A stretch of 26,778 nucleotides of DNA from a virus, in IMG/VR virus record IMGVR_UViG_3300034375_000499, positions 1-26,778 of that record. One strand, given 5' to 3'. The stretch's first letter is position 1; each line of letters begins with the position of its first letter. Shown one piece after another: positions 12,280-26,778 of the stretch. A program made the position numbers and the translations under genes. A model generated the notes under the pieces. That model ran no database searches, was not told the origin of the DNA, and worked only from the letters and a program-made list of their open reading frames with translations.

Positions 12280-15015
12280 GTGGACACCAAACAATTTTTG
12301 GGTTCTGTGTTAGGGAGTGAGGGGAACTACTGCCTGTGGTGCTATAACAGCAATAATAAAACCGATATAAAGCAAGAGTTTTATCCATCCATTGATGAGT
12401 TAATACAAAGAGCGGATGAACTCGACGCAGCAGCATACAATGTTTTCTTTGCCCTCGGCACATTTAAAGAACCAGATAACCGTAAACAAATAAACGTTAA
12501 CCAGATGAAGTCTTTCTTCATCGACTTGGATTGTGGACCTAGTAAAGAATTTATAGACCAACCTACTGCCTTTGAGGAACTGCGTAGGTTCTGTAAGACT
12601 AACAAGTTACCTCGGCCAACGATTGTAAATTCCGGTAACGGGCTGCATGTGTACTGGCCTTTGACTGAAGCCGTAGATGAAAAGACGTGGTTTCCAGTTG
12701 CGGAGGGTCTCAAGCAGCTATGTATAAAGCAAGACTTCCCAGCAGATCCCTCGCGTACATCTGATGCTGCTAGTATATTACGTGTACCCAACACGTATAA
12801 TTATAAGGGGGATGACCCCAAACCAGTTGGGTTACTACATGGATACTTAGCAGAACCAATAGATTTTTCAGAGTTTGAAGATTGTGTTGGCGGTGCGATA
12901 CCAGTACCCGAGAAGTTTGCTCCCAGCGCCTACCGCGATGCACTCAATGCACAAACGTCTGGCAGTTTTAAACGTTTGTTGGAAAAGACTGACAATGGTC
13001 AGGGCTGCGCACAGATCCAATATATTATAGATAATCAGGATAGTGTGTCTTACGACATGTGGCGTGCGGGTCTATCTATCGCTAAAGTATGTGTCGATGG
13101 AGACAAGGCAGCACGGGTAATGTCTTCCAACCATCCTGAGTACGATTTCAACGAAACTATGCGCAAAATGATGGACACAGGTGGACCACAATACTGTAGC
13201 ACCTTTGCCAAACATAACCCCGATGGCTGTGATGGGTGCCCTAATGCGTTAAGTATAACAACCCCCGCACAACTAACTAAAATCGTAGAAGAAGCCCCAC
13301 CCGAGCCAGAGATACCTCAATACCCTGCACCATACATGCGAGGTAAGAATGGTGGTGTTTATATGCGCACCAAAGATGAAGAGGGTAATCCTATCGAAGT
13401 GCCAATCTACCATCATGATTTCTACGTCACGCGTAGGTTGCACGATGTAGAACAGGGAGAAGTGGTGGCGTTTGCTCTGCACCTCCCAAGGGATGGTGTT
13501 CGGGAGTTTACAGTTCCTTTGATGGCTATCACTTCACGTGAAGAGTTCCGTAAGAACATGGCCATGAAGGGTATAACAACTTACGGAGAAGACTTGGGGA
13601 AGTTGATGAAATACGTACAAACATGGGTGAATGAATTGCAGCAGACAGGCGCAGCTAGTGAAGCACACCAACAGTTCGGTTGGGTTAACGATGACACCAT
13701 GCAGGAGTTCGTGCTGGGTGATAAACTTATTAAGGCAGACACGGTTGAGTACAACCCACCATCCTCTAAAACGGCTGGGTTTGTAGACGCGTTTAAGCCT
13801 ATGGGGTCAGCAGATCGTCAACGGGAGATACTCAGCTTTTTCAATGTAGAGGGTCTTGAGTTGCACCAGTTCGTTGTATGCATGGGACTGGGGTCTATAC
13901 TGATGCCACTGACAGGGCTGTTTAGTTTTGCTGCGCATTTATATGGTGGCTCTGGCGTTGGTAAAACCACTGCACTCTACTGCAATACAGCTATATGGGG
14001 TGACCCTCACTTCTTAACTTTAGGGCAACGTGACACACCTAACTCTCGTATGGCACGGGGCGAAGTGTACAAAAACCTATCACTAAACTCCGATGAAATG
14101 TCTAACATGACCCCGTTCGTAGCTTCTGATTACGCATATCAATTCGCTGAAGGTAAACAACGTAACAGGTTACAAGGAAGCGCCAACACGGAGCGGTGGC
14201 GGGGAAAGCCGTGGAGGATGATGGGTTGTTCGTCAGGCAACATAAGCATCTACGAATTGCTGAGTAAACTCAAAGCTGATCCAGAGGCAGAGATGCAGCG
14301 GATATTGGAGTTTACTGTTGATCCAAACCTCAAAGCCATAATCGACAAAGACAAAACCGATGCGCTTTATAGGGATATCCAAACGAACTACGGGCATTTC
14401 TCTGTGCCGTATATACAATATGTTATACAGAACCGCGATCAGATAGCGAAACTTTATGCAGGTATAAAAGAGCGGTTGGATAAAGCGGCTAACTTAACAG
14501 CGGTCAATCGTTTCTTCTCGGCAGGGTGCACCAACGTGCTCGTGGCGGCTACTATAGGAAACAAGCTAGGCATAGTAGGTTATGACGTGCGCCGTTTGTT
14601 TGACTGGATTGTGGTTGAGCTGAAACGTGTAAAGGCTGTGATCAGCGATACTGGGCCAGACACAAACTCTATAATAGCAGACTTCGCTCGGGATAACTGG
14701 GGTAGCATACTCAAAATTAAAAGCACTGATGACAATAGGGATGATGTGGTGGATCTTGTAATCCCAGAAAACATGCCAAAGAATAAACTCATTGGGCGCT
14801 ACGAGACGGATACAAAACTGATGTTTATCCCGATAAAAGAGTTCAAGAAATATCTTGTAGACCAGTACATAAACTATGCGTCTACGGTCAAAAGCCTGAA
14901 AGAAGAATTGGGTGCAACTTCAAAAGTGGTTAGAATTACAAAAGGCACGAGCCTTAACTTACCCTCTCAACGCTGCATAGTTGTAAAGATGGAAGGGTTA
15001 GATGAAACCACTTAG
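12280..15015 (+). CDS. Primase-helicase (AEP-like primase plus DUF927 helicase)
   Basis: The 911-residue protein starts at GTG 12280 with GGAAGAG 6 bp upstream. The N-terminal 180 residues look like an archaeo-eukaryotic primase: IDLD with Asp82 and Asp84, His123 in GLHVYW, Asp162, and a RVPNTYNYK segment at 168-176. Cysteines around 315-325 (the CDGCP region) may bind zinc. The C-terminal half matches DUF927-type helicases, with Walker A GSGVGKT at 557-563 and Walker B NSDE ending at Asp605-Glu606. It probably primes and unwinds for the family A polymerase. Its stop lies 14 bp inside the next gene. Confidence 0.88.
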   Translation: MDTKQFLGSVLGSEGNYCLWCYNSNNKTDIKQEFYPSIDELIQRADELDAAAYNVFFALGTFKEPDNRKQINVNQMKSFFIDLDCGPSKEFIDQPTAFEELRRFCKTNKLPRPTIVNSGNGLHVYWPLTEAVDEKTWFPVAEGLKQLCIKQDFPADPSRTSDAASILRVPNTYNYKGDDPKPVGLLHGYLAEPIDFSEFEDCVGGAIPVPEKFAPSAYRDALNAQTSGSFKRLLEKTDNGQGCAQIQYIIDNQDSVSYDMWRAGLSIAKVCVDGDKAARVMSSNHPEYDFNETMRKMMDTGGPQYCSTFAKHNPDGCDGCPNALSITTPAQLTKIVEEAPPEPEIPQYPAPYMRGKNGGVYMRTKDEEGNPIEVPIYHHDFYVTRRLHDVEQGEVVAFALHLPRDGVREFTVPLMAITSREEFRKNMAMKGITTYGEDLGKLMKYVQTWVNELQQTGAASEAHQQFGWVNDDTMQEFVLGDKLIKADTVEYNPPSSKTAGFVDAFKPMGSADRQREILSFFNVEGLELHQFVVCMGLGSILMPLTGLFSFAAHLYGGSGVGKTTALYCNTAIWGDPHFLTLGQRDTPNSRMARGEVYKNLSLNSDEMSNMTPFVASDYAYQFAEGKQRNRLQGSANTERWRGKPWRMMGCSSGNISIYELLSKLKADPEAEMQRILEFTVDPNLKAIIDKDKTDALYRDIQTNYGHFSVPYIQYVIQNRDQIAKLYAGIKERLDKAANLTAVNRFFSAGCTNVLVAATIGNKLGIVGYDVRRLFDWIVVELKRVKAVISDTGPDTNSIIADFARDNWGSILKIKSTDDNRDDVVDLVIPENMPKNKLIGRYETDTKLMFIPIKEFKKYLVDQYINYASTVKSLKEELGATSKVVRITKGTSLNLPSQRCIVVKMEGLDETT

Positions 15016-15278: not shown

Positions 15279-15306
15279 GGCCCTCACTTCGGTGGGGGCT
15301 ATTTTT
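15279..15306 (+). terminator. Intrinsic terminator of the rightward operon
   Basis: GCCCTCAC (15280-15287) pairs with GTGGGGGC (15292-15299) in an 8-bp stem capped by a TTCG tetraloop, followed by TATTTTTAT. This is a textbook rho-independent terminator for the plus strand. The U-tract runs into the stop codon (15305-15307) of the convergent leftward gene. Confidence 0.92.
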
Positions 15307-18300
15307 ATGTTAAGTCTTGGAACGCCGCTGCAAGTTCTAACAATGGCCCTCTATAGATAGGACTAATTGTTACACCATGATACATTCCACCAGAGGTGCG
15401 CATGTGCTGCTTCAATGACCGCTTTAAGGTATCTGAAGTTATAGATGCTTCTGGGTGACGCGCATTAAATTTCTGTATTTTTCTAAGCGCATCTGCATGC
15501 CCCTCTACATCGTTTTCGCGCAGCGTTATATAATAATCCCTGCTTAGTTTTGTGCGAGTATTGTTCACGGCCTTATCTATCTTCTTCATCACACGGGTTT
15601 TATCGCTAGTCTGCGTTTCACCCAAAGAACTAATGCCTATAGTCTTGAGTAAATAGTCTGCGCCTGACATATCTCCGTATATCACATCACCCCTACGGCT
15701 TTTTACGCCTTCATCACGGGGGTAACGTACTAAACCTTTGTATGCGTTCGCTACTGCAGTCGGCATAATGTTTTCAAACGCACGTTCGTATTTGCCTTCA
15801 GCAAAATCTTTATACGCACGTGGCGCACGTTTAATGGTAGAAAGTGCAGGGCCACCAAGATAGAACCCAAGGTTTTCTTCAAACGATGCGCTCGGATTAT
15901 ACTTGTTTTCTTGGATCAATAGACCAGTCAGCGCGGTGCGCGTTGCGGTGTCAAAGCCAGTCGCTGCAACCAACGGGCCTTTGAACCAACCTTCTCCAAT
16001 AGTTGTACGCACCATAGTGTCAAAATCTTGTTCATCATCGTCTTCTATAAAAGAATCAAACAGAAGACGCATAGCTCCATAGATCGGTATCCCCGAAACT
16101 CCAGAGAAAAACAACGCTGTGCCATGAAGGCCGTATAAAATCTTACGCGCTTCTTTACGCTCTTCTTTTGTTAAATCTTTATCGAACACACGTTTGACTT
16201 GCTTGAGCATACTGTAATACATCTGCAGCCCGTAGCTCTTATACATCAGGGCTACACGCCCAACACCTTCACGTGCAAGGCTCGGCCCTGTTTCTAGGTA
16301 TGCACCACCGTTGGCTTCTTGTGTCATGTATATGGCTTCGGCAGCAGCAGCTTCTTGCATTTCTGCTAGGCTCATGGTCACACTTGGATCGTCTTGGAGC
16401 TTCTTCATATGTAGATTGTATGCTGCGATCATTGTGTTCTGACGATTAAACTTCTCCGCATGGTTGAACATATATGCAGATAAGCCTGATACATAATCAG
16501 CCAAATTACCAACACTTTTGCGCTTCGCTCTTGATGCTTCATCGAGACCCATGCTCTCGGCTATATACCCCTGACTTATTAGCTGCCCTCTTTCAGACGC
16601 ATGTTTTACGAGCGGCATGATGTTGATCAACTCTTGCTTCATGGCATCAGACATTTTGGGGTCTGGTTTGATGGATATGTTGCCGTCTAGGTCAATATTG
16701 TAGAAGTCACGCAAAGAGTTTTTGGCGTTCATTGTTAAGCTACCCGCCTGCTTGATGGCAGCTATTGTATCTGCGTATCCATATTTACCACCCAGATAAG
16801 GCATAACAAATAGGGGTATCTGTGATAGGTTAACCAGAGCAGACGAGACGTTAAACCCGATGGTGTACACGAATGCGAACTGGTTGAGCCTGCGACCTAC
16901 ATCCTCAAAGGATTTATTCTTTGCCCCTTCTCGCGCAAACTTAGCCCTACTCAAAAGCTCTGCCTTGGTATCCTCAAATGCTCTTTCGGATACGCCCTCG
17001 GGCTGTTGCTGATCTTCGATCTCTTTTTCAACTGCGCGAATATTGGATGCAGCGCCAAGTTTCTGCGACTGCACGGCAATGTCGTAGCCCTTAGTTCTTA
17101 GGGCGTACATGCTATCTTCCTTATAACCGGGTGTGCCTTTACGCTTTTGCAATGACTTAGCAAAGGATGTCTCTGGCAGTGTGGCTACGAACAATCGCAT
17201 AACCTCTTCAATGGCTTTGCTATCTACCTTTGCCTTGGATAGCGAATTTACAACTTGAAACACAAACGAGGTAGGTGGCGCGTTTTGGTAATCTTCTATA
17301 GTCATATCACCCTGTGATTTCTTTGCGTTTTCGTAAAGGGGGTCAGCCTCTACTTCTTTAAACATCGCATCACGTTCTGCCCGTGTTTCAAACATCTCGA
17401 CGATATATTCCGCACGTTTGTCTGCGGTGTTTTTAACCGCGTAAGATAGTTTGAAGTTGCCCTCACGCACCAATGGGAAATAAACTTCCAATGTGTTGGT
17501 CTCAAACAGTTTGTTGTATATGTCTTTCTGCACTTTCTTGGCTATTTCAGGATCACCCGCCTCTTTGCCAAGGGCGTCTATCTCTTTCAATACAATGGAC
17601 CGAGCGCGTTCGTACTGATCTTTATAGTGATCACGCATTACGGTGTACGCACGTTTACCGTCTGACCCTATAGCTCGCACATTAGCGCGTTGGTCTTCCC
17701 AAATATCTAGCAGGGTTTTGTTGGGGTCTGTGCTTTGCTTGTCTTTGTACCGCTTCACAGCTTCCGACTTACTTAGGAATGGGTCTACCTGATAGATGGT
17801 AGCGCCGAAGTCTGCGCTGTAGATAAGTTCGTCGAGCTTAGCAACTTTAGCATCGCCCATACGTTTAAATATGCCCCGCACTTCTTCGATAACATTCTTT
17901 GTGGTTTCGGTTGCAGTTGTTATTGAACCGCGCTGCTTCAGGATGGCGTTATCTAGGTCAAACCCTAACTTGTTAAACCCATACGCAGACGCAACATCCG
18001 CCAAGCCTTGGCTGGCAAGAAGTTTTAAGAACGTCTTACGTGGCGCTGCTTTGGCGTTATTTAAGAAATCAGTGGATTGATACTTAAACTGCTCTCTATC
18101 AAAACTTTTGACCAGTTTGCGTTGCACTTCGCCAACCTTCTTAGCGGCTTCTTGTACATCGTTCCTGTCACCCAGCGCGTATTGACCTTCTCCCACGTAT
18201 TCAGGATCGGGCCTCATAACAGCTTCTAGCAAACCGTTTAACTCATCCCCGGTACGAACCTCTCGTGGTACACCTACTAACGCACGTAGAGCATCTTTAA

Positions 18301-21300
18301 ATCTGCCCAGTAGGGTCTGCTCTTGCCCCTCTATACGCTTAACCAGTATGTTCCTAAACTTCTGATTGGTCATGCTCTCGGATGCAAACTCTGCCAAGCT
18401 AGTAAGTCCGTAGTGAGTAGGGATATCAGTGTTATCCTCTTGCAACAAATTCATCGCTTGATTGTAAGTTTTTTCTAGCTGCAGCCTAGCTTTCTTTTCT
18501 GCGCCTTTTAATTTACTCTTTGGCTCTGTTGCTACTTTTATTGTTAATGCGTGTGCCACTTCGTGCAGCAATGTGTGAGCGTCTACACCCTGTACGCTGT
18601 CTATAAATATTGTTTTTGTGGGTGCATCGTACAGCCCTTGCACGGCTTCACCCGCCTCATTCGTCAGGTTTTTCTTGATTTTTAGGGTAACACCGTACCC
18701 TTTTAGAGATGTTTTGAACTTCCGTGCTAGATTACGAACAAATACATCTTTTGTTTTGCTTTCGCTCAACAGGCTAAGCGCACCGTCTAGGTCACCTGCT
18801 TTAATAGCGGTTTCAAGATCCACTACAGGAAGCTCATTACCACGTTCTGTCAACAACGTTACATACTTAGCGGCTTTGCGTTGACCGTATAATGTGTCTT
18901 CTATTGTTCTGTTGCTTTCTATATTGGCTCTAGCAATATCAGCTTTACGCTTTAACTCTTCCAACACTTTCTTGTCGCTGGCAGCAGAGTTTTTATTAAC
19001 AAACTTGATTATTTCTTTTGCAACTGCAGGTGCCACTTTTAACTGGTCAGGGCTACTGACTTCGGCATCAACATAGGCATCGGCTATAGCAGCTTCAGGA
19101 TTTGCATAAGCCTCAAAATACTTCCTAAAGCCTTCTAACTTCTCGCCCTGTTCTAACCGTTCAAATATAGCTTTATTTAACTTGTTAGACAGACGGTTCT
19201 CTTCAGATACAGTCCCACCCGTGCCTTCTTTTCTACGGGCTTCTTGTACGACCTCAGACTTTTCACCTTTACGTTTTTCATTCCAACGCTTGCGGATCTT
19301 TTGACCAAAGTTTTCTTCGCGTGCTTTTTGAGTTGCGGTGAACCCTTTTACAGCTTTTGGCTTTTCATCAGCTTTGCCAAGCACGTTTAAGTTTCCAAGC
19401 TCACGCTCTCTTTGCCCTATTAGCACGCGGCGTTTGGCTTTATCAGTTTCACCTTCAAGTAGTTTTGCGTATTTGCGTGTGATCACATCTCTATTAGCAC
19501 GCTCAGACTTTGATAGTTCAAAAGGCTTTGTTGGTTTTTGTTGCTTCATAGAGGTGCCACGCCCTATGGCATACACGTCAGACCTTGCAGTAGCTGCAGC
19601 GTCTTCAGCTAATGGTCCTGCATCAGTTACGTTCCGTGCTACAAGCACTTGGCCTTTTTTCAACTGTTTTGCACGACGATCAAATTCAGTTTTGTTAAAC
19701 GTGCGTCCAACTGGAAATTCTATTACCTCGGTAGCATCCACCGTAAAAGGAACCACCTCCCCATCAGGACCACTATAACTCGCGGCTACATCAGGGTTAG
19801 TAGAGGCAAACACGTTATACCCGTCACGCGGTGCAAGTTTATCCTTAACGTCTTTACGGTTGAGACCGCGATAGAGGGTAACACTTTTTAAGCCTTGTTC
19901 TGGTTTAAACGTAGGTTCGATGCGATCAACTGGTGTGTCCAACGCCTCTTTAACAAAGCTGTAAACATCGGCATCAATTTGTTCTGCATATTCTGGGAAC
20001 ATGTCTTTTAGATTGCGCTTCGCATCTTCGGCGGGTCTAGCTCCTACGTCTTGGACCGCACCTAACTCTATAGCTGTTCTGTCTATCTCTTTAACTGCTT
20101 GCACCATTTCAACATCGCCCAAGGCTTCTGCTTCTTTAAGTGCCTCTACAAAATCTTGTCCACCCCACTTTGCGCTAGGGGTTCTTCGATGCGGCAACCC
20201 GTTAACGTCTGGGCGGATGCCGTATTTTTGGTCGTAATTTGCAGTAGCGCGTTTATAATAGTTTTCCGCTAGTTTTAATTCTTCGCTCTCATCTTTTAAA
20301 TCTGAAAGCGTGACAGGCGCACCCGTGAACGGATTATCAGTGCTTTTCATCCACTGCTGTACTTTTGCAGCGGTAGCAAAATCTAGTGTAGTTGGCTTTC
20401 TTCCTTTTGCAGGATCAACACGCTTAACATCATACCTGCCACTTCCCATTCCTTCGCCGTCAGATGCTTCAGACTCCTCGGTGCCAGTATCCGGTCGCTG
20501 TCCTTCTCCCAAGCCTGATTGATCACCCGAAACGCCTTCTCCAAGTCCTGCATCGTCAGGTGCGGCGGCAGGTGAAACTCCTCCAGTGGGTCCAGCATCA
20601 ATTTCCTCCACAGTTTTAAAGGTTGGTTTTGCTTCAGTTAACAGCAACGGTTCAGTTCGAGTGATAGGTTCTTGCCCACCGTCTAGTTCACGAGCTTTTT
20701 TCCTGCCTATTGCAGCCATTAACTGTTCTTCAAAAGCAGTAAAATCTTCTACTTCTGGTTTTTCTGGGCCTTCACGAAGCGGTGCTTTATCTGCTTCCTC
20801 TCGTGCAATCTCATCAAACTTGCGTATTGGGATGGTACGACTTTTTAGTTTTTCTCTGTCAAACGCGATACCGCCCTTTGTTTCAGACGCATCTCTTGCT
20901 TCAACACGTGTATCAAGCAGCTCTTGATTAGCTTGTAACGCGCCAAGACCTAATTCGCTTAGATCAACTTCTTGAGGCCGACTAGATACAAATTCTGGGC
21001 CTTCTTCCATTTGCTTGTCTCTGGCCTGCACGAATGTACGTGATAGGTTAGACATTTCTCCACGTACAGGTTCTGTTGGACCTTCGTATTCCGCTTCAGG
21101 ATCTACAACCTTTGCGGCTTCTTCTGCGAGTATTTTTTCTGCTTGTTGAGAAGTTAGACCTTCTATCTCGCCAAGTTGAGTGATTAACTCTGCAGGTAAC
21201 GCACCGCCTGTCTTTGGTAGTTCTTCCGCTAATAAGGCACGGGCCTCTTCTTCTGCAGTAGTTACTGGTGGGGTAACAGGTCCAGTTTTACGGCTGTTTG

Positions 21301-22210
21301 TAAACGCGTCCACGAGGAATTGGATGGTAGCTCCTGCACCACCACCGTACAGCGCAGATTCACCCGTACCACCAAACAGGTCACGCTCTGGGTTGTACCC
21401 TTGCTCCACAAGGTTTTGCACTATTTCAGATGTAGCTTCCTGTGCACCCTCTGCACCGCCTGTAACGGCTGCACTTGTCACGCGTTGACCTATGGTCTCT
21501 ACGGTTTCTGGCCCAAGCTGGTCTATCAACTTATTGATTAGCGGCACGTCAACAGAGCGCATGAACCGCCCAAGAGGGGCTACCTCTAATATACCAACAG
21601 GTGCGGCTTGACGCACGGCACGGGTACGCTCTTCTTCTGTAGCACCTGCAGCACGGGCACGTTCACTAGCTTCACCTGCGGCAGCACTCACACCTAACAG
21701 AGCACCTATACCTGTACCTGCAACAGTGGTGGGGATTGCAGCGGGGGCTAGGGCAGCGGTAGCAGCAATGGGTGCGGCAAACCCAGCGATAGAACCAAAG
21801 GTTTGGCCAATTTTGTAAGATATATCGTCTTCGCCACCAGCTTTTGGTGACACTGAATCCGCAATACTTTGTATCCTGCTACGGGCTGCGAGTTCTTTTT
21901 TTTCGTCAAGCAGGGTGGCTAAACCTAATGCAGCCATCTCACCTGTACCTACGGCACCAGCTTGAAAACCACGGCGCAGGTTACTCATTATACCCGTGTC
22001 TTCTGGCTCAGGCTCAGGTGCTGGAATAGCTGCAGCCGCTGCTCTGCGTTCTTCATCATTCGCTAAATCACGTTGCGCCCGTTCAAACGAAGACACTCTT
22101 GTACCTTCACCACGTTTTATCTTGGCGACTAACTCTTCCTGAGAAGCGTCCTTAGTACCTTCTATTTCAAAAACAGAGCCATCTTCAAACGTGAATGTAT
22201 GTATGCCCAT
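15305..22210 (-). CDS. Giant polyvalent virion protein (ART-like, metallopeptidase, LPD38-like)
   Basis: This encodes 2301 residues. Residues 78-305 are rich in Ala and Gly with hydrophobic stretches (about 136-175), like membrane-active ejection proteins. An acidic, low-complexity part runs to about 590. Residues 770-890 look like a phage ADP-ribosyltransferase domain: LYRG with Arg781, FAST at 801-804, then VLVARNVTD. Residues 1190-1290 hold a zinc peptidase motif, HEVAH at 1216-1220, with Glu1274 or Glu1278 as probable third ligand. The C-terminal part (about 1770-2200, with ALVNLSQIPLFVMPYL) resembles the large polyvalent protein domain LPD38. The layout fits a protein packaged in the capsid and injected with DNA to modify host proteins. 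It is the last gene of the leftward operon, with GAAGAG before its ATG. Confidence 0.85.
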   Translation of the reverse strand: MGIHTFTFEDGSVFEIEGTKDASQEELVAKIKRGEGTRVSSFERAQRDLANDEERRAAAAAIPAPEPEPEDTGIMSNLRRGFQAGAVGTGEMAALGLATLLDEKKELAARSRIQSIADSVSPKAGGEDDISYKIGQTFGSIAGFAAPIAATAALAPAAIPTTVAGTGIGALLGVSAAAGEASERARAAGATEEERTRAVRQAAPVGILEVAPLGRFMRSVDVPLINKLIDQLGPETVETIGQRVTSAAVTGGAEGAQEATSEIVQNLVEQGYNPERDLFGGTGESALYGGGAGATIQFLVDAFTNSRKTGPVTPPVTTAEEEARALLAEELPKTGGALPAELITQLGEIEGLTSQQAEKILAEEAAKVVDPEAEYEGPTEPVRGEMSNLSRTFVQARDKQMEEGPEFVSSRPQEVDLSELGLGALQANQELLDTRVEARDASETKGGIAFDREKLKSRTIPIRKFDEIAREEADKAPLREGPEKPEVEDFTAFEEQLMAAIGRKKARELDGGQEPITRTEPLLLTEAKPTFKTVEEIDAGPTGGVSPAAAPDDAGLGEGVSGDQSGLGEGQRPDTGTEESEASDGEGMGSGRYDVKRVDPAKGRKPTTLDFATAAKVQQWMKSTDNPFTGAPVTLSDLKDESEELKLAENYYKRATANYDQKYGIRPDVNGLPHRRTPSAKWGGQDFVEALKEAEALGDVEMVQAVKEIDRTAIELGAVQDVGARPAEDAKRNLKDMFPEYAEQIDADVYSFVKEALDTPVDRIEPTFKPEQGLKSVTLYRGLNRKDVKDKLAPRDGYNVFASTNPDVAASYSGPDGEVVPFTVDATEVIEFPVGRTFNKTEFDRRAKQLKKGQVLVARNVTDAGPLAEDAAATARSDVYAIGRGTSMKQQKPTKPFELSKSERANRDVITRKYAKLLEGETDKAKRRVLIGQRERELGNLNVLGKADEKPKAVKGFTATQKAREENFGQKIRKRWNEKRKGEKSEVVQEARRKEGTGGTVSEENRLSNKLNKAIFERLEQGEKLEGFRKYFEAYANPEAAIADAYVDAEVSSPDQLKVAPAVAKEIIKFVNKNSAASDKKVLEELKRKADIARANIESNRTIEDTLYGQRKAAKYVTLLTERGNELPVVDLETAIKAGDLDGALSLLSESKTKDVFVRNLARKFKTSLKGYGVTLKIKKNLTNEAGEAVQGLYDAPTKTIFIDSVQGVDAHTLLHEVAHALTIKVATEPKSKLKGAEKKARLQLEKTYNQAMNLLQEDNTDIPTHYGLTSLAEFASESMTNQKFRNILVKRIEGQEQTLLGRFKDALRALVGVPREVRTGDELNGLLEAVMRPDPEYVGEGQYALGDRNDVQEAAKKVGEVQRKLVKSFDREQFKYQSTDFLNNAKAAPRKTFLKLLASQGLADVASAYGFNKLGFDLDNAILKQRGSITTATETTKNVIEEVRGIFKRMGDAKVAKLDELIYSADFGATIYQVDPFLSKSEAVKRYKDKQSTDPNKTLLDIWEDQRANVRAIGSDGKRAYTVMRDHYKDQYERARSIVLKEIDALGKEAGDPEIAKKVQKDIYNKLFETNTLEVYFPLVREGNFKLSYAVKNTADKRAEYIVEMFETRAERDAMFKEVEADPLYENAKKSQGDMTIEDYQNAPPTSFVFQVVNSLSKAKVDSKAIEEVMRLFVATLPETSFAKSLQKRKGTPGYKEDSMYALRTKGYDIAVQSQKLGAASNIRAVEKEIEDQQQPEGVSERAFEDTKAELLSRAKFAREGAKNKSFEDVGRRLNQFAFVYTIGFNVSSALVNLSQIPLFVMPYLGGKYGYADTIAAIKQAGSLTMNAKNSLRDFYNIDLDGNISIKPDPKMSDAMKQELINIMPLVKHASERGQLISQGYIAESMGLDEASRAKRKSVGNLADYVSGLSAYMFNHAEKFNRQNTMIAAYNLHMKKLQDDPSVTMSLAEMQEAAAAEAIYMTQEANGGAYLETGPSLAREGVGRVALMYKSYGLQMYYSMLKQVKRVFDKDLTKEERKEARKILYGLHGTALFFSGVSGIPIYGAMRLLFDSFIEDDDEQDFDTMVRTTIGEGWFKGPLVAATGFDTATRTALTGLLIQENKYNPSASFEENLGFYLGGPALSTIKRAPRAYKDFAEGKYERAFENIMPTAVANAYKGLVRYPRDEGVKSRRGDVIYGDMSGADYLLKTIGISSLGETQTSDKTRVMKKIDKAVNNTRTKLSRDYYITLRENDVEGHADALRKIQKFNARHPEASITSDTLKRSLKQHMRTSGGMYHGVTISPIYRGPLLELAAAFQDLT

Positions 22211-22215
22211 GCGTT

Positions 22216-24294
22216 TTACTCTTCTGTAAAGCTACTGTCGGTAACGTCGCCTAATGGGGCACCGCCCTGTTCTCCTAACTGACCTTGTACCAACGGAGTT
22301 AACTGGTCAAGACGATCTAACATCAGTTTTCCTACACCACCCGGTAGCGCATCACTTGCAAACAGCGCGTTGGCTTTGTTGGTAGCCATACCATTGATAA
22401 GAGCGGCATTGTTTCGTTGCGCAGTTTTTTCAGAAATTTGAACATCTATTGCTGCTTTTTTATCTGCATCAGGTTCAAGAGTTTTGCTACTTCTAAGAGC
22501 TTCAATTTCTGCGTCTAGCTGCGCTTCTATGCTTGTTACAAATGCGGCTGTAGTTTGTAGAATTGTAGAACTAATACTGCTCCATTCTTCTAACTGCGCT
22601 TTGTCTAATGCACGCTGTGCAGCCTGTACACGCGCTGCCTCTGCATTGTTTTCTTTTAACGTCTGTAGTTCTATTTGTGCGGCGTTAGTATCTGCGTTTT
22701 TCTCTTGCGTATCCGCGTTTTGCTGTAAAATAGCGGTCCGTTGGTCATCGGTAAGTTGCGAGGCTTCTAGTTTTGCTTGCTCCACTAACGCTGTTAGTTC
22801 TGCTTTGCTATAACCCGCTGCTATTTGTTGCGCAGTACGGTTGTTTGCTTGTAACTCACCAAATACTGTAGTGCCTAAACGTAACGCCTCGCCGCCAAGA
22901 GTAGCGTCTACACTCATAGCCGTAGTTTCAAGTTCAAACCGTTTAGCCATACGTGCCATCGCATCAGCGTTTTGTTTTGCTTTTGTTGCTTGACTTGCAT
23001 CAACAGCGCCTTTGGCAAGGCCACCCAGCGTTGTAGTGCCTGCACCGCCCGTAAGAAACTTAGAAAGGCGATCCCTTTGTTGTGATTCTGGGCTGAACAG
23101 TTCAGCCTCTTTAGCGCGAGATTCTGCTAACATCTCTGCAAAACGTGCAGCCTTATCGGAACGCCCAAGGATATCGTCAGCCGCTGAAGCCGAACTCTGT
23201 AACACGCTAGCTAGACCACCAACACCGCCTCCACCAGCGGAAGGTGCACCACTTGCGAGTTTAAAATTTTGAAGTGCAGCGGGTATGCCAGTAATGTTTT
23301 CAGGCGCTCCTTTTTCAGAAGATTGAGCTACGCTTGCTTGTGCAGGGGCGGCTGCATTTGGACTTGGAGGCACAAAAGGTTGATTTGTGCCAAGAGCTAC
23401 GCTGGGTAGTTCTGGTTGAGCAAACGCATCCGCAGGCATGTCAAACTGACCCCTACTGCTATCTAACGCGTTACCAACGTCAAAACCCGCACCCATTGCT
23501 TTAGGATCAGGTAGCATATCTGCTTGTGCTTGAGCGTCTTGCTTTATTTCTAAATCTTTTTTCTCTTGACGTTGAGTTTTTGCGAGATCCAAACCTCTAC
23601 CCTTGCCCAACCCAGTAAAAAAATCTTTTGCACGAGAAAATCCTGTTGGCGGAGCTAGGTTTTGTTTGATCCGGTTTACAATTTCCGCGTCAGATATATT
23701 ACGCAAAGAACCGCCAAGTTGTGCACGGTACGCATCAATCTCAGCTTTACTAACACCTTGTGTAGATCCTCCATCTGCGAAAGCTACAATACCACCGCCA
23801 GCCATTCGGATTGGACCGCCTTGTTGTGCAGCCTGCATCATACGAGCGTTTGCGACGCCTTGAGCTTGGGGAGGCATTCTACGTTGTGGAGCGGGTGACA
23901 TACCTGCAAGGCCGGGAAGACCAGCAATACCTGCGGGTTTGCGAGGTTGTGCCTTTGCTAGCTGCTGCATATTTTTCTGCTGCATCTTTTGTTTTTGGTC
24001 TAACACGCCTTTTGTACGACCCGCCAAATCACCAAGCGTGCTACTCATCTCTTGTTTTGTTAGTTGTAAGGCTTCTTGTTCGCGCTGCTGTGCTATAGTA
24101 CCCGGCTGCTGCTGCATCTTTAACTGCATGTCTGCAGCTACGGCTTTCTTTTCAGACGTAAGTTTTTGCAACGCCAACAAATCTAGGAGTTCCTTGTTGG
24201 CCCCGTAACGCTGCTGTAGCTTCTGTGGGTTGCCTCTGTAAGCATCCATACGTTGTTCTATTTGTGCGTCTAAACCGCCGTCACCTAGAGCCAT
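22216..24294 (-). CDS. Putative internal virion or structural protein with ADGG motif
   Basis: The 692-residue protein has a Gln-rich helical N-terminus (about 10-115), a Pro/Gly-rich part, then GGGIVAFADGG at 166-176. That motif is widespread in structural proteins of marine podoviruses. Residues 380-640 are Ala/Gln/Glu-rich with coiled-coil character. No catalytic motif is seen. Its position between the giant ejection-type protein and other structural genes suggests an internal core or ejection role. It overlaps the previous gene by 1 bp (TAATG on the minus strand), and the next ATG lies 5 bp beyond its stop. Confidence 0.75.
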   Translation of the reverse strand: MALGDGGLDAQIEQRMDAYRGNPQKLQQRYGANKELLDLLALQKLTSEKKAVAADMQLKMQQQPGTIAQQREQEALQLTKQEMSSTLGDLAGRTKGVLDQKQKMQQKNMQQLAKAQPRKPAGIAGLPGLAGMSPAPQRRMPPQAQGVANARMMQAAQQGGPIRMAGGGIVAFADGGSTQGVSKAEIDAYRAQLGGSLRNISDAEIVNRIKQNLAPPTGFSRAKDFFTGLGKGRGLDLAKTQRQEKKDLEIKQDAQAQADMLPDPKAMGAGFDVGNALDSSRGQFDMPADAFAQPELPSVALGTNQPFVPPSPNAAAPAQASVAQSSEKGAPENITGIPAALQNFKLASGAPSAGGGGVGGLASVLQSSASAADDILGRSDKAARFAEMLAESRAKEAELFSPESQQRDRLSKFLTGGAGTTTLGGLAKGAVDASQATKAKQNADAMARMAKRFELETTAMSVDATLGGEALRLGTTVFGELQANNRTAQQIAAGYSKAELTALVEQAKLEASQLTDDQRTAILQQNADTQEKNADTNAAQIELQTLKENNAEAARVQAAQRALDKAQLEEWSSISSTILQTTAAFVTSIEAQLDAEIEALRSSKTLEPDADKKAAIDVQISEKTAQRNNAALINGMATNKANALFASDALPGGVGKLMLDRLDQLTPLVQGQLGEQGGAPLGDVTDSSFTEE

Positions 24295-25123: not shown

Positions 25124-25825
25124 TCACGCTGGTATGAATTTTTTAGGGTCTATCTCTTTACCCTGTTTCGTATTGCCAGTGCGGGCTTTACGCACACGAC
25201 GCATCATATCTTCAAGCACTTTAGCACCTGCATCAGAGTTTCCATTGCCCAAATGACTTACTACGTCTGCAGGAATAACAAATTCTCCATCACTAAGCCG
25301 CGCTTCCTGTACCCCGTCAATGTTTGCAGGTACTTTATCAGCCATACCATCTGTAGCACCGTCTAGGTACTTACCTTTTTTGAGTGCGGCTATCCCGCCT
25401 GCAGCCATTTCTTGTACGGGTTCAGGGATGCCTACTGCTCTTTTGCGCTGCTGCTGCGCAGGGTTTGCTAAGTTCAAAGCGGCTAGCCCTTCAGCTTCTT
25501 GTTCTGTTTCCGCACGCAGCGCTGCGTTATCTTCTCCACGAGGGGCGTAGCGCATACCTGAAAAATACCGTTGGCCTCCACTGCCGGGACGGCGATTGGG
25601 ATCATATGTCTGCGGCACAGCTTGTTGAATTGCTTCGTATTCGGGTATTTTGCCTTGGTAGCCCATACGTTCAGTGCTGCCTTGACCTAAACCACTAAAA
25701 GCTAAAAGAGCGCCGCCTCCAAGCGCGCCTGCTAACCTCGTAGCAGGATCTGTTTTCTCATCAAGAAAATCAATGTCAGGAACATCAACCCCAGCTTTAC
25801 CCATAAGGTCTGTAAACCAACTCAT
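25124..25825 (-). CDS. Putative structural protein with DGMADKVPANIDG motif
   Basis: The 233-residue protein starts MSWFTDLMGKAG, followed by a short Gly/Ala hydrophobic stretch (33-47). The C-terminal 95 residues hold MAAGGIAAL at 140-148, LDGATDGMADKVPANIDG at 154-171, and EARLSDGEFVIPADVVSHLG at 174-193. This C-terminal module is common in marine phage genomes, usually next to virion genes, and may be a tail or capsid accessory domain. It overlaps the upstream gene by 4 bp (ATGA), with GGAGAG 6 bp before the ATG. Confidence 0.75.
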   Translation of the reverse strand: MSWFTDLMGKAGVDVPDIDFLDEKTDPATRLAGALGGGALLAFSGLGQGSTERMGYQGKIPEYEAIQQAVPQTYDPNRRPGSGGQRYFSGMRYAPRGEDNAALRAETEQEAEGLAALNLANPAQQQRKRAVGIPEPVQEMAAGGIAALKKGKYLDGATDGMADKVPANIDGVQEARLSDGEFVIPADVVSHLGNGNSDAGAKVLEDMMRRVRKARTGNTKQGKEIDPKKFIPA

Positions 25826-26778
25826 TTTAACTCTCCAAGCATCTTTAGTAGCATATCATTTTCATCCTCGACCTGTCCACCCTGCGCAAAACTACCAAAA
25901 CCGCTCGTTGGGTTTAACGCTTGTTGAGCAACATTTGCTTGGTTGCCACCAAACGGAGACACATACCGACTAGCTTGCGCACTATCTCGAAATATAGATT
26001 TAAAGTCATACGGCGTTATATTACCTACTGGATCAGGCGTGGTGACAGTAACACGTTGTCCACCAATATCTTCAGCTTGTCCTAGTAGTTGCATGAGATT
26101 ATTTACGTTCTGCTGTTTGGTTTGATCGTCTATTTTTGTATTAAGTTGAGTATTGAGCTGAGTGATTAAGTCTTGTGTTGTCTGCGTGTCTTGCTGCTGC
26201 TGTTGGTATAAGCCTGTTGCAGGGGTAAACATAGACGTATCTGCAAGGGTGACATCTTCCTCGCCCTGTAATGCTGTTTCTAACAGGGTTTGGTCATTTA
26301 TGTCAACGATACCATCTCCGGTGACATCATACTGCGTAATTAACTCTTGGCTGACATTTTCTTGCGCTATGAGATCAATTACAAAGTCTATATCTGTTTG
26401 AGTGACATCTCGTGCGGGCTTGCCCACATATTTTGCGATTGTGTCTAACTCATTACCAAGGCTAGCTTCTACGTCACTTATAGCAGTTGTGAAACTTTCC
26501 GTTAATTCGTCTTTAGTAGTACCAAGTTCCGCGAGTATATTTGTTTCTGTAGTGCCCAGAGTAGACGCCAGTTCAGCCAGCGCTGTATCTACATCTCCAG
26601 CATTCTCGTTTATTAACGCAGTTAAGTCTGTTTCTAGGGTGGTTAAACCTTTGGCGAACTCTGTTTGTAATGCTTCGGTAGTAGTACCAAGTTCCGCGAG
26701 TATATTTGTTTCTGTAGTGCCCAGAGTAGACGCCAGTTCAGCCAGCGCTGTATCTACATCTCCAGCATTCTCGTTTAT
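25822..26778 (-). CDS. Repeat-containing fibre-like structural protein (5' end beyond window)
   Basis: The frame is open through the right edge, so only the last 318 residues are seen. A GTG at 26427 in this frame has no ribosome binding site, and homogeneous coding continues upstream of it, so it is not the start. Residues 1-110 of the visible part contain two copies of an INENAGDVDTALAELASTLG unit, 55 residues apart. Residues 151-162 (DVTGDGIVDIND) match the calcium loop of a dockerin-type motif. A Gln/Thr-rich helical stretch follows, and the C-terminus is FAQGGQVEDENDMLLKML. A tail fibre or adhesin role is likely but not proven. Confidence 0.75.
   Translation of the reverse strand: MNENAGDVDTALAELASTLGTTETNILAELGTTTEALQTEFAKGLTTLETDLTALINENAGDVDTALAELASTLGTTETNILAELGTTKDELTESFTTAISDVEASLGNELDTIAKYVGKPARDVTQTDIDFVIDLIAQENVSQELITQYDVTGDGIVDINDQTLLETALQGEEDVTLADTSMFTPATGLYQQQQQDTQTTQDLITQLNTQLNTKIDDQTKQQNVNNLMQLLGQAEDIGGQRVTVTTPDPVGNITPYDFKSIFRDSAQASRYVSPFGGNQANVAQQALNPTSGFGSFAQGGQVEDENDMLLKMLGELK
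26514..26613 (-). repeat. 100-bp exact direct repeat, copy 1
   Basis: These 100 bases recur exactly at 26679-26778, a period of 165 bp or 55 codons. On the minus strand they encode helical units such as DVDTALAELASTLGTTETN. The identity at DNA level implies a recent duplication or gene conversion inside the fibre-like gene. Confidence 0.92.
26679..26778 (-). repeat. 100-bp exact direct repeat, copy 2 (reaches window edge)
   Basis: Second copy of the repeat at 26514. It touches the window edge, so the identical stretch may be longer and there may be more units outside. The 65 bp between the copies are not repeated within the window. Confidence 0.92.

What the first reader, a model, noticed from the sequence alone, without database searches (positions are those of the whole stretch)
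15305..22210. 2301-residue polyvalent protein with two effector-like domains
One virion-block protein combines an Ala/Gly-rich membrane-active N-terminus, an ADP-ribosyltransferase-like domain, a zinc peptidase HEVAH motif and an LPD38-like C-terminus. Such polyvalent proteins are thought to be injected with phage DNA and to disable host defences early. The order of domains and the weakly conserved, charged region 890-1180 between them may hold further effectors.
Basis: partly seen in the sequence, partly recalled or inferred. Interest (0 to 1): 0.65.

Follow-up and report, generated by a model that had tools for sequence, protein, structure and literature searches.

The report
Giant phage ejection protein with cassettes
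A very large protein of an uncultured phage is probably carried in the virus particle and pushed into the bacterium; it has a protein-cutting domain, a swappable NAD-enzyme-like domain with altered catalytic residues, and, unexpectedly, a small conserved second gene hidden in another reading frame of its own gene.

Summary
The ORF is real: 2301 aa on the minus strand (22210 to 15305). It is a new variant of a known kind, a phage polyvalent protein.

Shown: aa 1575-2284 is the PLxRFG domain (NF032893, 297 bits), not LPD38. The HEVAH domain is a zincin (H1216, E1217, H1220, E1274 invariant in 9 relatives) and matches the N4 virion RNA polymerase C1 domain and the PhiM1 ejection protein. Aa 774-890 has an ADP-ribosyltransferase (ART) fold; its family resembles ART-PolyVal, but the catalytic His is Arg781 and the Tyr is Phe801.

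Mosaic: the ART cassette is missing from a phage 95% identical elsewhere and 88% identical in a phage only 50-70% identical elsewhere. The module at 606-772 also moves between backbones. The zincin allele is much more diverged than its flanks.

New: giant codons ~538-609 overlap a conserved 71-aa +1-frame gene (minus strand 20598-20383). It is 100% identical between window and L001 while the giant's own frame there is 80% identical with no synonymous change. Homologues lie in the same relative frame in divergent giant genes; no known family matches.

Virion packaging, ejection, enzyme activities and translation of the nested gene are inferred, not shown.

The parts
15305..22210 (-). giant polyvalent/ejection protein ORF, 2301 aa
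   Evidence: open frame; full-length or partial homologues next to the primase gene in 10 other viral loci
21251..21988 (-). Ala/Gly-rich N-terminal region aa 75-320, membrane-prone (hydrophobic peak aa 141-159)
   Evidence: conserved 41-59% with L012, L019, L036 over aa 100-300
20383..20598 (-). nested +1-frame gene, 71 aa (MLDPLEEFHLPPHL...KEESQLH), GGAGGA five nt upstream of ATG
   Evidence: frame +1 pN 0 / pS 0.32 versus frame 0 pN 0.09 / pS 0 against L001; 12 giant genes, all relative frame +1
19895..20395 (-). module M1, aa 606-772, mobile, no known fold
   Evidence: about 97% identical in L079, whose zincin/C-terminal part is only 24% identical; present in L082, absent from L083 and L036
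19541..19891 (-). ART-like cassette, aa 774-890 (R781, F801, S803, D878)
   Evidence: absent from L001; 88.6% aa identical in L036; model pLDDT 78, pTM 0.73, best PDB rows all ART superfamily
18890..19537 (-). charged linker, aa 892-1107, no domain found
   Evidence: 39% charged; no Pfam family
18161..18889 (-). zincin domain with diverged allele, aa 1108-1350; ligands H1216, H1220, E1274, catalytic E1217
   Evidence: PDB profile hits 9sfn 3.2e-18, 8vb2 1.8e-9, 11fw (N4 vRNAP) 1.7e-4; model matches 9pnr 2124-2368, Z 8.0; pS 0.5-0.8 against ~0.13 upstream
17573..17806 (-). LPD39-like stretch aa 1469-1546
   Evidence: 26.5 bits, just under the Pfam cut-off 27; above cut-off in L012, L016, L024, L051, L062
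15359..17488 (-). PLxRFG ('tail-700') domain aa 1575-2284
   Evidence: NCBIfam NF032893, 296.7 bits, cut-off 100
22216..24294 (-). 692-aa neighbour in the same block (position of N4 gp51, a second ejection protein)
   Evidence: gene order compared with N4; no family match
12280..15015 (+). DUF927 primase/helicase-like gene converging on the giant gene; anchor for synteny

Best explanation
This is a virion-carried ejection protein built as a conserved chassis plus exchangeable cassettes. The chassis is a membrane-prone N-terminus, a zincin of the kind found in N4 vRNAP (C1) and PhiM1 gp48, and a long helical PLxRFG C-terminus. It occupies the place of the N4 virion RNA polymerase at the convergence of replication and virion genes, but has no polymerase. 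In the most likely mechanism the protein sits in the capsid, is threaded through the short tail ahead of the DNA, and its N-terminus lodges in the cell envelope. The zincin may clip the chain or a host protein, releasing cargo (M1 module, ART-like cassette) into the cytoplasm. The ART-like cassette keeps the fold but has Arg for the catalytic His and Phe for the Tyr, so its chemistry is altered or lost. Cassettes come and go by recombination just downstream of a nested +1-frame gene, which encodes a separate ~70-aa protein and dictates the composition of the giant's linker. Shown by sequence or model: architecture, folds, cassette mobility, and opposite selection in the two frames. Inferred: packaging, ejection, cleavage, NAD use, translation of the nested gene.
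For: PLxRFG 296.7 bits. Zincin profile hits solved internal-virion/ejection proteins and N4 vRNAP; the zincin model fits N4 gp50 2124-2368, 182 residues, rmsd 4.3, Z 8.0. The zincin is homologous to phi14:2 g065, a protein annotated from virion MS/MS beside the virion RNAP gene. Same convergent order as N4 gp50-gp51. A PLxRFG/DarB-like relative class is virion-associated by MS in podovirus JC1 (PMC9144972; JC1 itself was not compared here). ART fold with dN/dS 0.11. Cassette presence/absence and transfer. Nested gene.
Against: No homology was found between the C-terminal part and N4 C2, so the 'same chassis' claim rests on the zincin, gene position and general layout. Foldseek E-values for the ART model are weak (best 3.6e-3). 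Z 7.5 is a middling score, although the listed rows are all ART superfamily members. No virion proteomics exist for this phage. The C-terminal model is poor (pTM 0.50).
Confidence: 0.68

Rival explanations
1. The ART-like cassette is a pseudo-enzyme: it keeps the fold to bind NAD, ADP-ribose or a host protein but does not catalyse transfer.
For: His, Tyr and the YDG Asp of canonical ART-PolyVal are replaced (Arg781, Phe801, K-G-Q854) when aligned with L073-L075; the E/Q/H/T/S residue at the 854 position is not conserved.
Against: R781, G782, Y798 and F801 are invariant and D878 at least 90% conserved in 19 sequences, with dN/dS 0.11, which looks like a maintained pocket.
Confidence: 0.4
2. The zincin has only a structural role in the ejection channel, or is vestigial, rather than being a working protease.
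For: The homologous domain lies in solved ejectosome and vRNAP structures (8vb2, 9pnr) described without shown protease activity.
Against: HExxH plus the third ligand E1274 are invariant in 9 divergent relatives where almost nothing else is; the allele is exchanged but keeps dN/dS 0.15.
Confidence: 0.35
3. The giant is an ordinary structural/tail or scaffold-like virion protein with no effector role; the cassettes are neutral insertions.
For: NCBIfam names the C-terminal family 'tail-700'; no activity is known.
Against: The cassette is under strong purifying selection, also occurs alone in jumbo phage D479 and recurs in many unrelated giant proteins.
Confidence: 0.2
4. The nested +1 frame is a by-product of biased composition and not a gene.
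For: An 84-codon open +1 frame is not unusual for this gene (151 of 500 codon shuffles reach it).
Against: The frame is conserved in amino acids where the giant's frame is not, in several lineages. Only windows starting at codons 534-594 of 119 show this against L001. Profile hits of 6.5e-13, 4e-12 and 4.8e-10 occur in other giant genes, always relative frame +1.
Confidence: 0.07

Closest known systems
Polyvalent proteins (Iyer et al. 2017, PMC5512222)
   Same: very large phage protein joining zincin, ART-like domain and LPD-type domains
   Different: ART-like domain lacks the H-Y-D residues; cassette mobility between near-identical phages is documented here; a nested gene lies inside
N4 virion RNA polymerase gp50 (9pnr/11fw; PMC12633501)
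   Same: convergent gene position, N-terminal membrane-prone region, homologous C1 zincin followed by a large helical C-terminal part
   Different: no RNA polymerase; no detectable C2 homology; cargo modules in the middle
PhiM1 tetrameric ejection protein gp48 (8vb2; PMC11440229)
   Same: homologous zincin domain (E 1.8e-9) inside a capsid-resident ejection protein
   Different: 1263 aa, no ART cassette noted; rest of alignment is loose (rmsd 19.3)
ART-PolyVal (PF18760) and Roseovarius podovirus RPP1 vRNAP ART
   Same: fold; family member L045 matches PF18760 over its full length, 25.7 bits, below cut-off 31.2
   Different: Arg for His, Phe for Tyr, Asp of YDG missing; window copy itself gives no Pfam hit
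PLxRFG / DarB-like giant proteins of podoviruses (Bcep22, JC1, Skulduggery, SopranoGao)
   Same: C-terminal NF032893 domain; DarB-like protein virion-associated in JC1 (PMC9144972)
   Different: no methylase-helicase modules found here; overall only the C-terminus aligns (21-27% identity)
crAss-like virion protein phi14:2 g065
   Same: homologous zincin (profile E 1.1e-19 in a four-sequence search), virion cargo next to RNAP subunit g066
   Different: remaining domains unrelated; C-terminal profile does not match

Membership tests
Polyvalent protein | two or more disparate domains in one polypeptide, including enzymatic ones, in a mobile-element protein | tested here: met
   zincin, ART-like fold, PLxRFG
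Polyvalent protein | transferred into the host with the DNA | not testable with these tools
   needs virion proteomics or a translocation assay
Zincin metallopeptidase (N4 C1 / ejection-protein type) | HExxH plus downstream Glu ligand | tested here: met
   H1216, E1217, H1220, E1274 invariant in 9 sequences
Zincin metallopeptidase (N4 C1 / ejection-protein type) | fold shared with N4 gp50 C1 | tested here: met
   Z 8.0, 182 residues, rmsd 4.3 to 9pnr 2124-2368; sequence profile 1.7e-4 to 11fw
ART-PolyVal / Tox-ART-HYD2 | ART fold | tested here: met
   model pLDDT 78; the 50 best rows are ART superfamily members, Z up to 7.5 over about 118 residues; BFVD PolyVal ARTs with probability 1.00
ART-PolyVal / Tox-ART-HYD2 | His in strand 1, Tyr in strand 2, Asp in strand 5 | tested here: not met
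   Arg781, Phe801 and no YDG Asp by alignment with L073-L075; residue map is from sequence, not superposition
ART-PolyVal / Tox-ART-HYD2 | PF18760 match above cut-off | tested here: not met
   window: none; relatives L045/L056 25.7/22.5 bits, below 31.2
R-S-E class ART | Arg, Ser motif and ExE glutamate | tested here: not met
   R781 and S803 conserved, but the residue at the putative Glu position is E/Q/H/T/S; nearest folds listed are mainly H-Y-E class
LPD38 (PF18857) | profile match | tested here: not met
   no hit at E<=1 or E<=10 for the C-terminal part, while L045 scores 114.5 bits
PLxRFG domain (NF032893) | profile match above cut-off | tested here: met
   296.7 bits, cut-off 100
LPD39 (PF18858) | profile match above cut-off | tested here: inconclusive
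   26.5 bits against 27 in the window; five relatives pass
N4-like vRNAP | single-subunit RNA polymerase core | tested here: not met
   no RNAP family hit in the giant
N4-like vRNAP | C2 C-terminal fold | tested here: inconclusive
   no sequence-profile match to N4 or RPP1; C-terminal model too poor

The most novel reading that the evidence does not exclude
The giant gene is a dual-coding locus. A nested gene in the +1 frame, conserved across several divergent phage lineages, encodes a separate, undescribed ~70-aa phage protein whose codons dictate the giant's linker and mark the edge of the slot where effector cassettes are swapped. One of those cassettes belongs to an unrecognised Arg-variant clade of polyvalent ARTs.
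Probability: 0.65. Interest if true: 0.72.

Novelty: new variant of a known kind. Interest (0 to 1): 0.6.

Why it matters
It gives a natural experiment on how phages load and change the cargo of ejected proteins: near-identical phages differ by one clean effector cassette. It names an ART-like clade that current profiles miss and ties an unknown giant protein to solved ejection machines through the zincin. The overlapping gene shows that a 'disordered linker' in a virion protein can be there because of another gene, a warning for annotation and a new small phage protein family to test.

Tried and rejected
LPD38 at the C-terminus: no profile hit. R-S-E assignment of Arg781: rejected on alignment with His-bearing ART-PolyVal relatives. 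Profile comparison of the ART family with RPP1's ART alone failed, so the link runs through PF18760 and structure. Homology of the C-terminus with N4 C2/RPP1: none found by HMM or hhalign; Foldseek of the 1182-residue model gave nothing useful. Single-sequence PDB searches for the whole protein and the ART found nothing, and for the zincin nothing significant. Open length of the nested frame as evidence: rejected, common by chance. Known relatives of the nested protein: none in Pfam, PHROGs, NCBIfam, PDB; nothing significant in phage records. PADLOC: no defence match. A -1 frameshift origin of the nested product is unlikely: it lies in the +1 frame and in L079-L083 a stop precedes its ATG.

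Full report
What was checked. The 6,906-base ORF is open on the minus strand and encodes 2301 aa. The window is a complete but short IMG/VR record. Replication genes (Pol A, SNF2-type helicase, SSB, DUF927 primase) run on the plus strand and converge on a minus-strand block that starts with the giant gene. N4 has the same arrangement, with its virion RNA polymerase gp50 followed by ejection protein gp51.

Relatives. Searching viral contigs with the adjacent primase gave 26 loci. Ten loci besides the near-identical phages carry a homologous giant or part of it in the same place. Full-length ones are 1929-2188 aa. Cultured relatives with the C-terminus and an HExxH motif are Rhizobium phage RHph_TM29 EVB31_083 and Pseudomonas phage Rollin WNV50603.1; the zincin profile itself matches TM29, and neither has the ART cassette.

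C-terminus. Aa 1575-2284 matches NCBIfam NF032893 'PLxRFG' at 296.7 bits. An LPD39-like stretch precedes it (26.5 bits against a cut-off of 27) and passes the cut-off in relatives. LPD38 is not found. DarB-like giant proteins, the annotation carried by many of the C-terminal hits, are virion-associated by mass spectrometry in podovirus JC1 (PMC9144972).

Zincin. Of about 227 aligned positions only a dozen are invariant in nine relatives, among them H1216, E1217, H1220 and E1274. The profile finds 9sfn 'internal virion protein' (3.2e-18), PhiM1 ejection protein gp48 (1.8e-9), lethal-factor zincins (1.8e-5) and the N4 vRNAP (1.7e-4). In the model, residues 14-216 fit N4 gp50 2124-2368 (Z 8.0, 182 residues, rmsd 4.3), the C1 zincin of PMC12633501. 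It is also homologous to virion protein g065 of crAss-like phage phi14:2. This is the best evidence that the giant belongs with ejected proteins; it is not proof of ejection.

ART-like cassette. L001, 95% identical in the N-terminal part, lacks it cleanly. Phage L036 has it 88.6% identical in protein although its N-terminal part is 50%, its zincin 38% and its C-terminus 70% identical; dN/dS in the cassette is 0.11. Further copies occur in unrelated giant proteins and as a stand-alone gene of jumbo phage D479. The model (pLDDT 78, pTM 0.73) returns only ART superfamily members among the 50 listed best structures (Z up to 7.5 over about 118 residues) and PolyVal ARTs among viral models. Relatives L045 and L056 match PF18760 below its cut-off. 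Aligned by eye with His-bearing ART-PolyVal domains of L073-L075, the invariant strand-1 residue is Arg781 instead of His and the strand-2 Tyr is Phe801. The YDG Asp is missing, and Asp878 in a following strand is at least 90% conserved. So it works within the ART fold, but it is not an H-Y-D member, and catalysis is open.

Mosaic structure. Module M1 (aa 606-772) is about 97% identical in L079, whose zincin and C-terminus are only 24% identical. L082 carries it and its close relative L083 does not. The zincin block 1108-1350 shows pS 0.5-0.8 between window and L001, against about 0.13 in the N-terminal part and linker and about 0.23 in the following C-terminal stretch; that fits an exchanged allele. 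Parts of the C-terminal 300 aa are also raised (pS 0.3-0.6), less sharply.

Nested gene. Around giant codons 538-657, window and L001 differ at non-synonymous but not at synonymous sites. The reason is a second frame. ATG at 20598, stop at 20383 on the minus strand, 71 codons, GGAGGA five nt upstream. In that +1 frame window and L001 are identical in protein with pS 0.32, while in the giant's frame pN is 0.09 and pS 0. The same inversion holds in all non-identical pairs among seven sequences. Only windows starting at codons 534-594 of 119 show it for window/L001. Profile matches in L024, L042 and L019 (6.5e-13 to 4.8e-10), and weakly L051, lie in the same relative frame; nine sequences share 14 invariant residues. 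Length alone is not evidence (151 of 500 codon shuffles reach it). No known family matches. Its stop abuts the point where M1 (window, L082, L079) or the ART cassette (L036) begins. I infer, without proof, that the conserved nested gene gives recombination a homologous edge.

Verdict. A known kind of object in a new variant, with two points that deserve follow-up: the Arg-type ART clade and the overlapping gene. Ejection, protease and NAD activities, defence inhibition and translation of the nested gene are untested.

Noticed in passing
window 20383-20598, minus strand: Conserved 71-aa gene nested in the +1 frame of the giant gene, with a Shine-Dalgarno-like GGAGGA; no known family.
   Followed up: yes
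window 19895-20395, minus strand: Module M1 (aa 606-772) is shared almost identically with a giant protein whose backbone is only 24% identical (L079), so it is a second mobile cassette of unknown fold.
   Followed up: partly
window 22216-24294, minus strand: The neighbouring 692-aa protein is only 70% identical to its L001 counterpart (pS 0.37) while most other compared genes are 96-99% identical: a second fast-changing virion gene.
   Followed up: no
window 22216-24294, 25124-25825, 25822-26778, minus strand; L043: Short Gly-rich motifs of the type MAGGGIVAFADGG / MAAGGIAALKKG / FAQGGQV recur in several proteins of the virion block and in the unrelated giant protein of L043; possibly a shared processing or packaging signal.
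   Followed up: no
window 26503-26778: Two copies of a 111-nt repeat, 165 nt apart, at the record's end, encoding coiled-coil-like 55-aa repeats; next to it a dockerin/EF-hand-like DVTGDGIVDINDQTLLETAL.
   Followed up: no
window aa 1585-1636 of the giant (about 17303-17458, minus strand): The model of this small beta-beta-alpha-beta segment superposes on the C-terminal domain of CapRel (Z 7.1, 49 residues, rmsd 1.2); may be only a common small fold.
   Followed up: no
L031 4731-5411 (Vibrio phage D479): Stand-alone 226-aa gene with the ART-like domain in a jumbo phage near RNA ligase and GTP cyclohydrolase genes, annotated hypothetical.
   Followed up: partly
L033 8476-13605 (crAssphage cr53_1): The virion-type giant protein with the homologous zincin reads with 24 in-frame stop codons under table 11, in keeping with stop-codon reassignment in crAss-like phages.
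   Followed up: no
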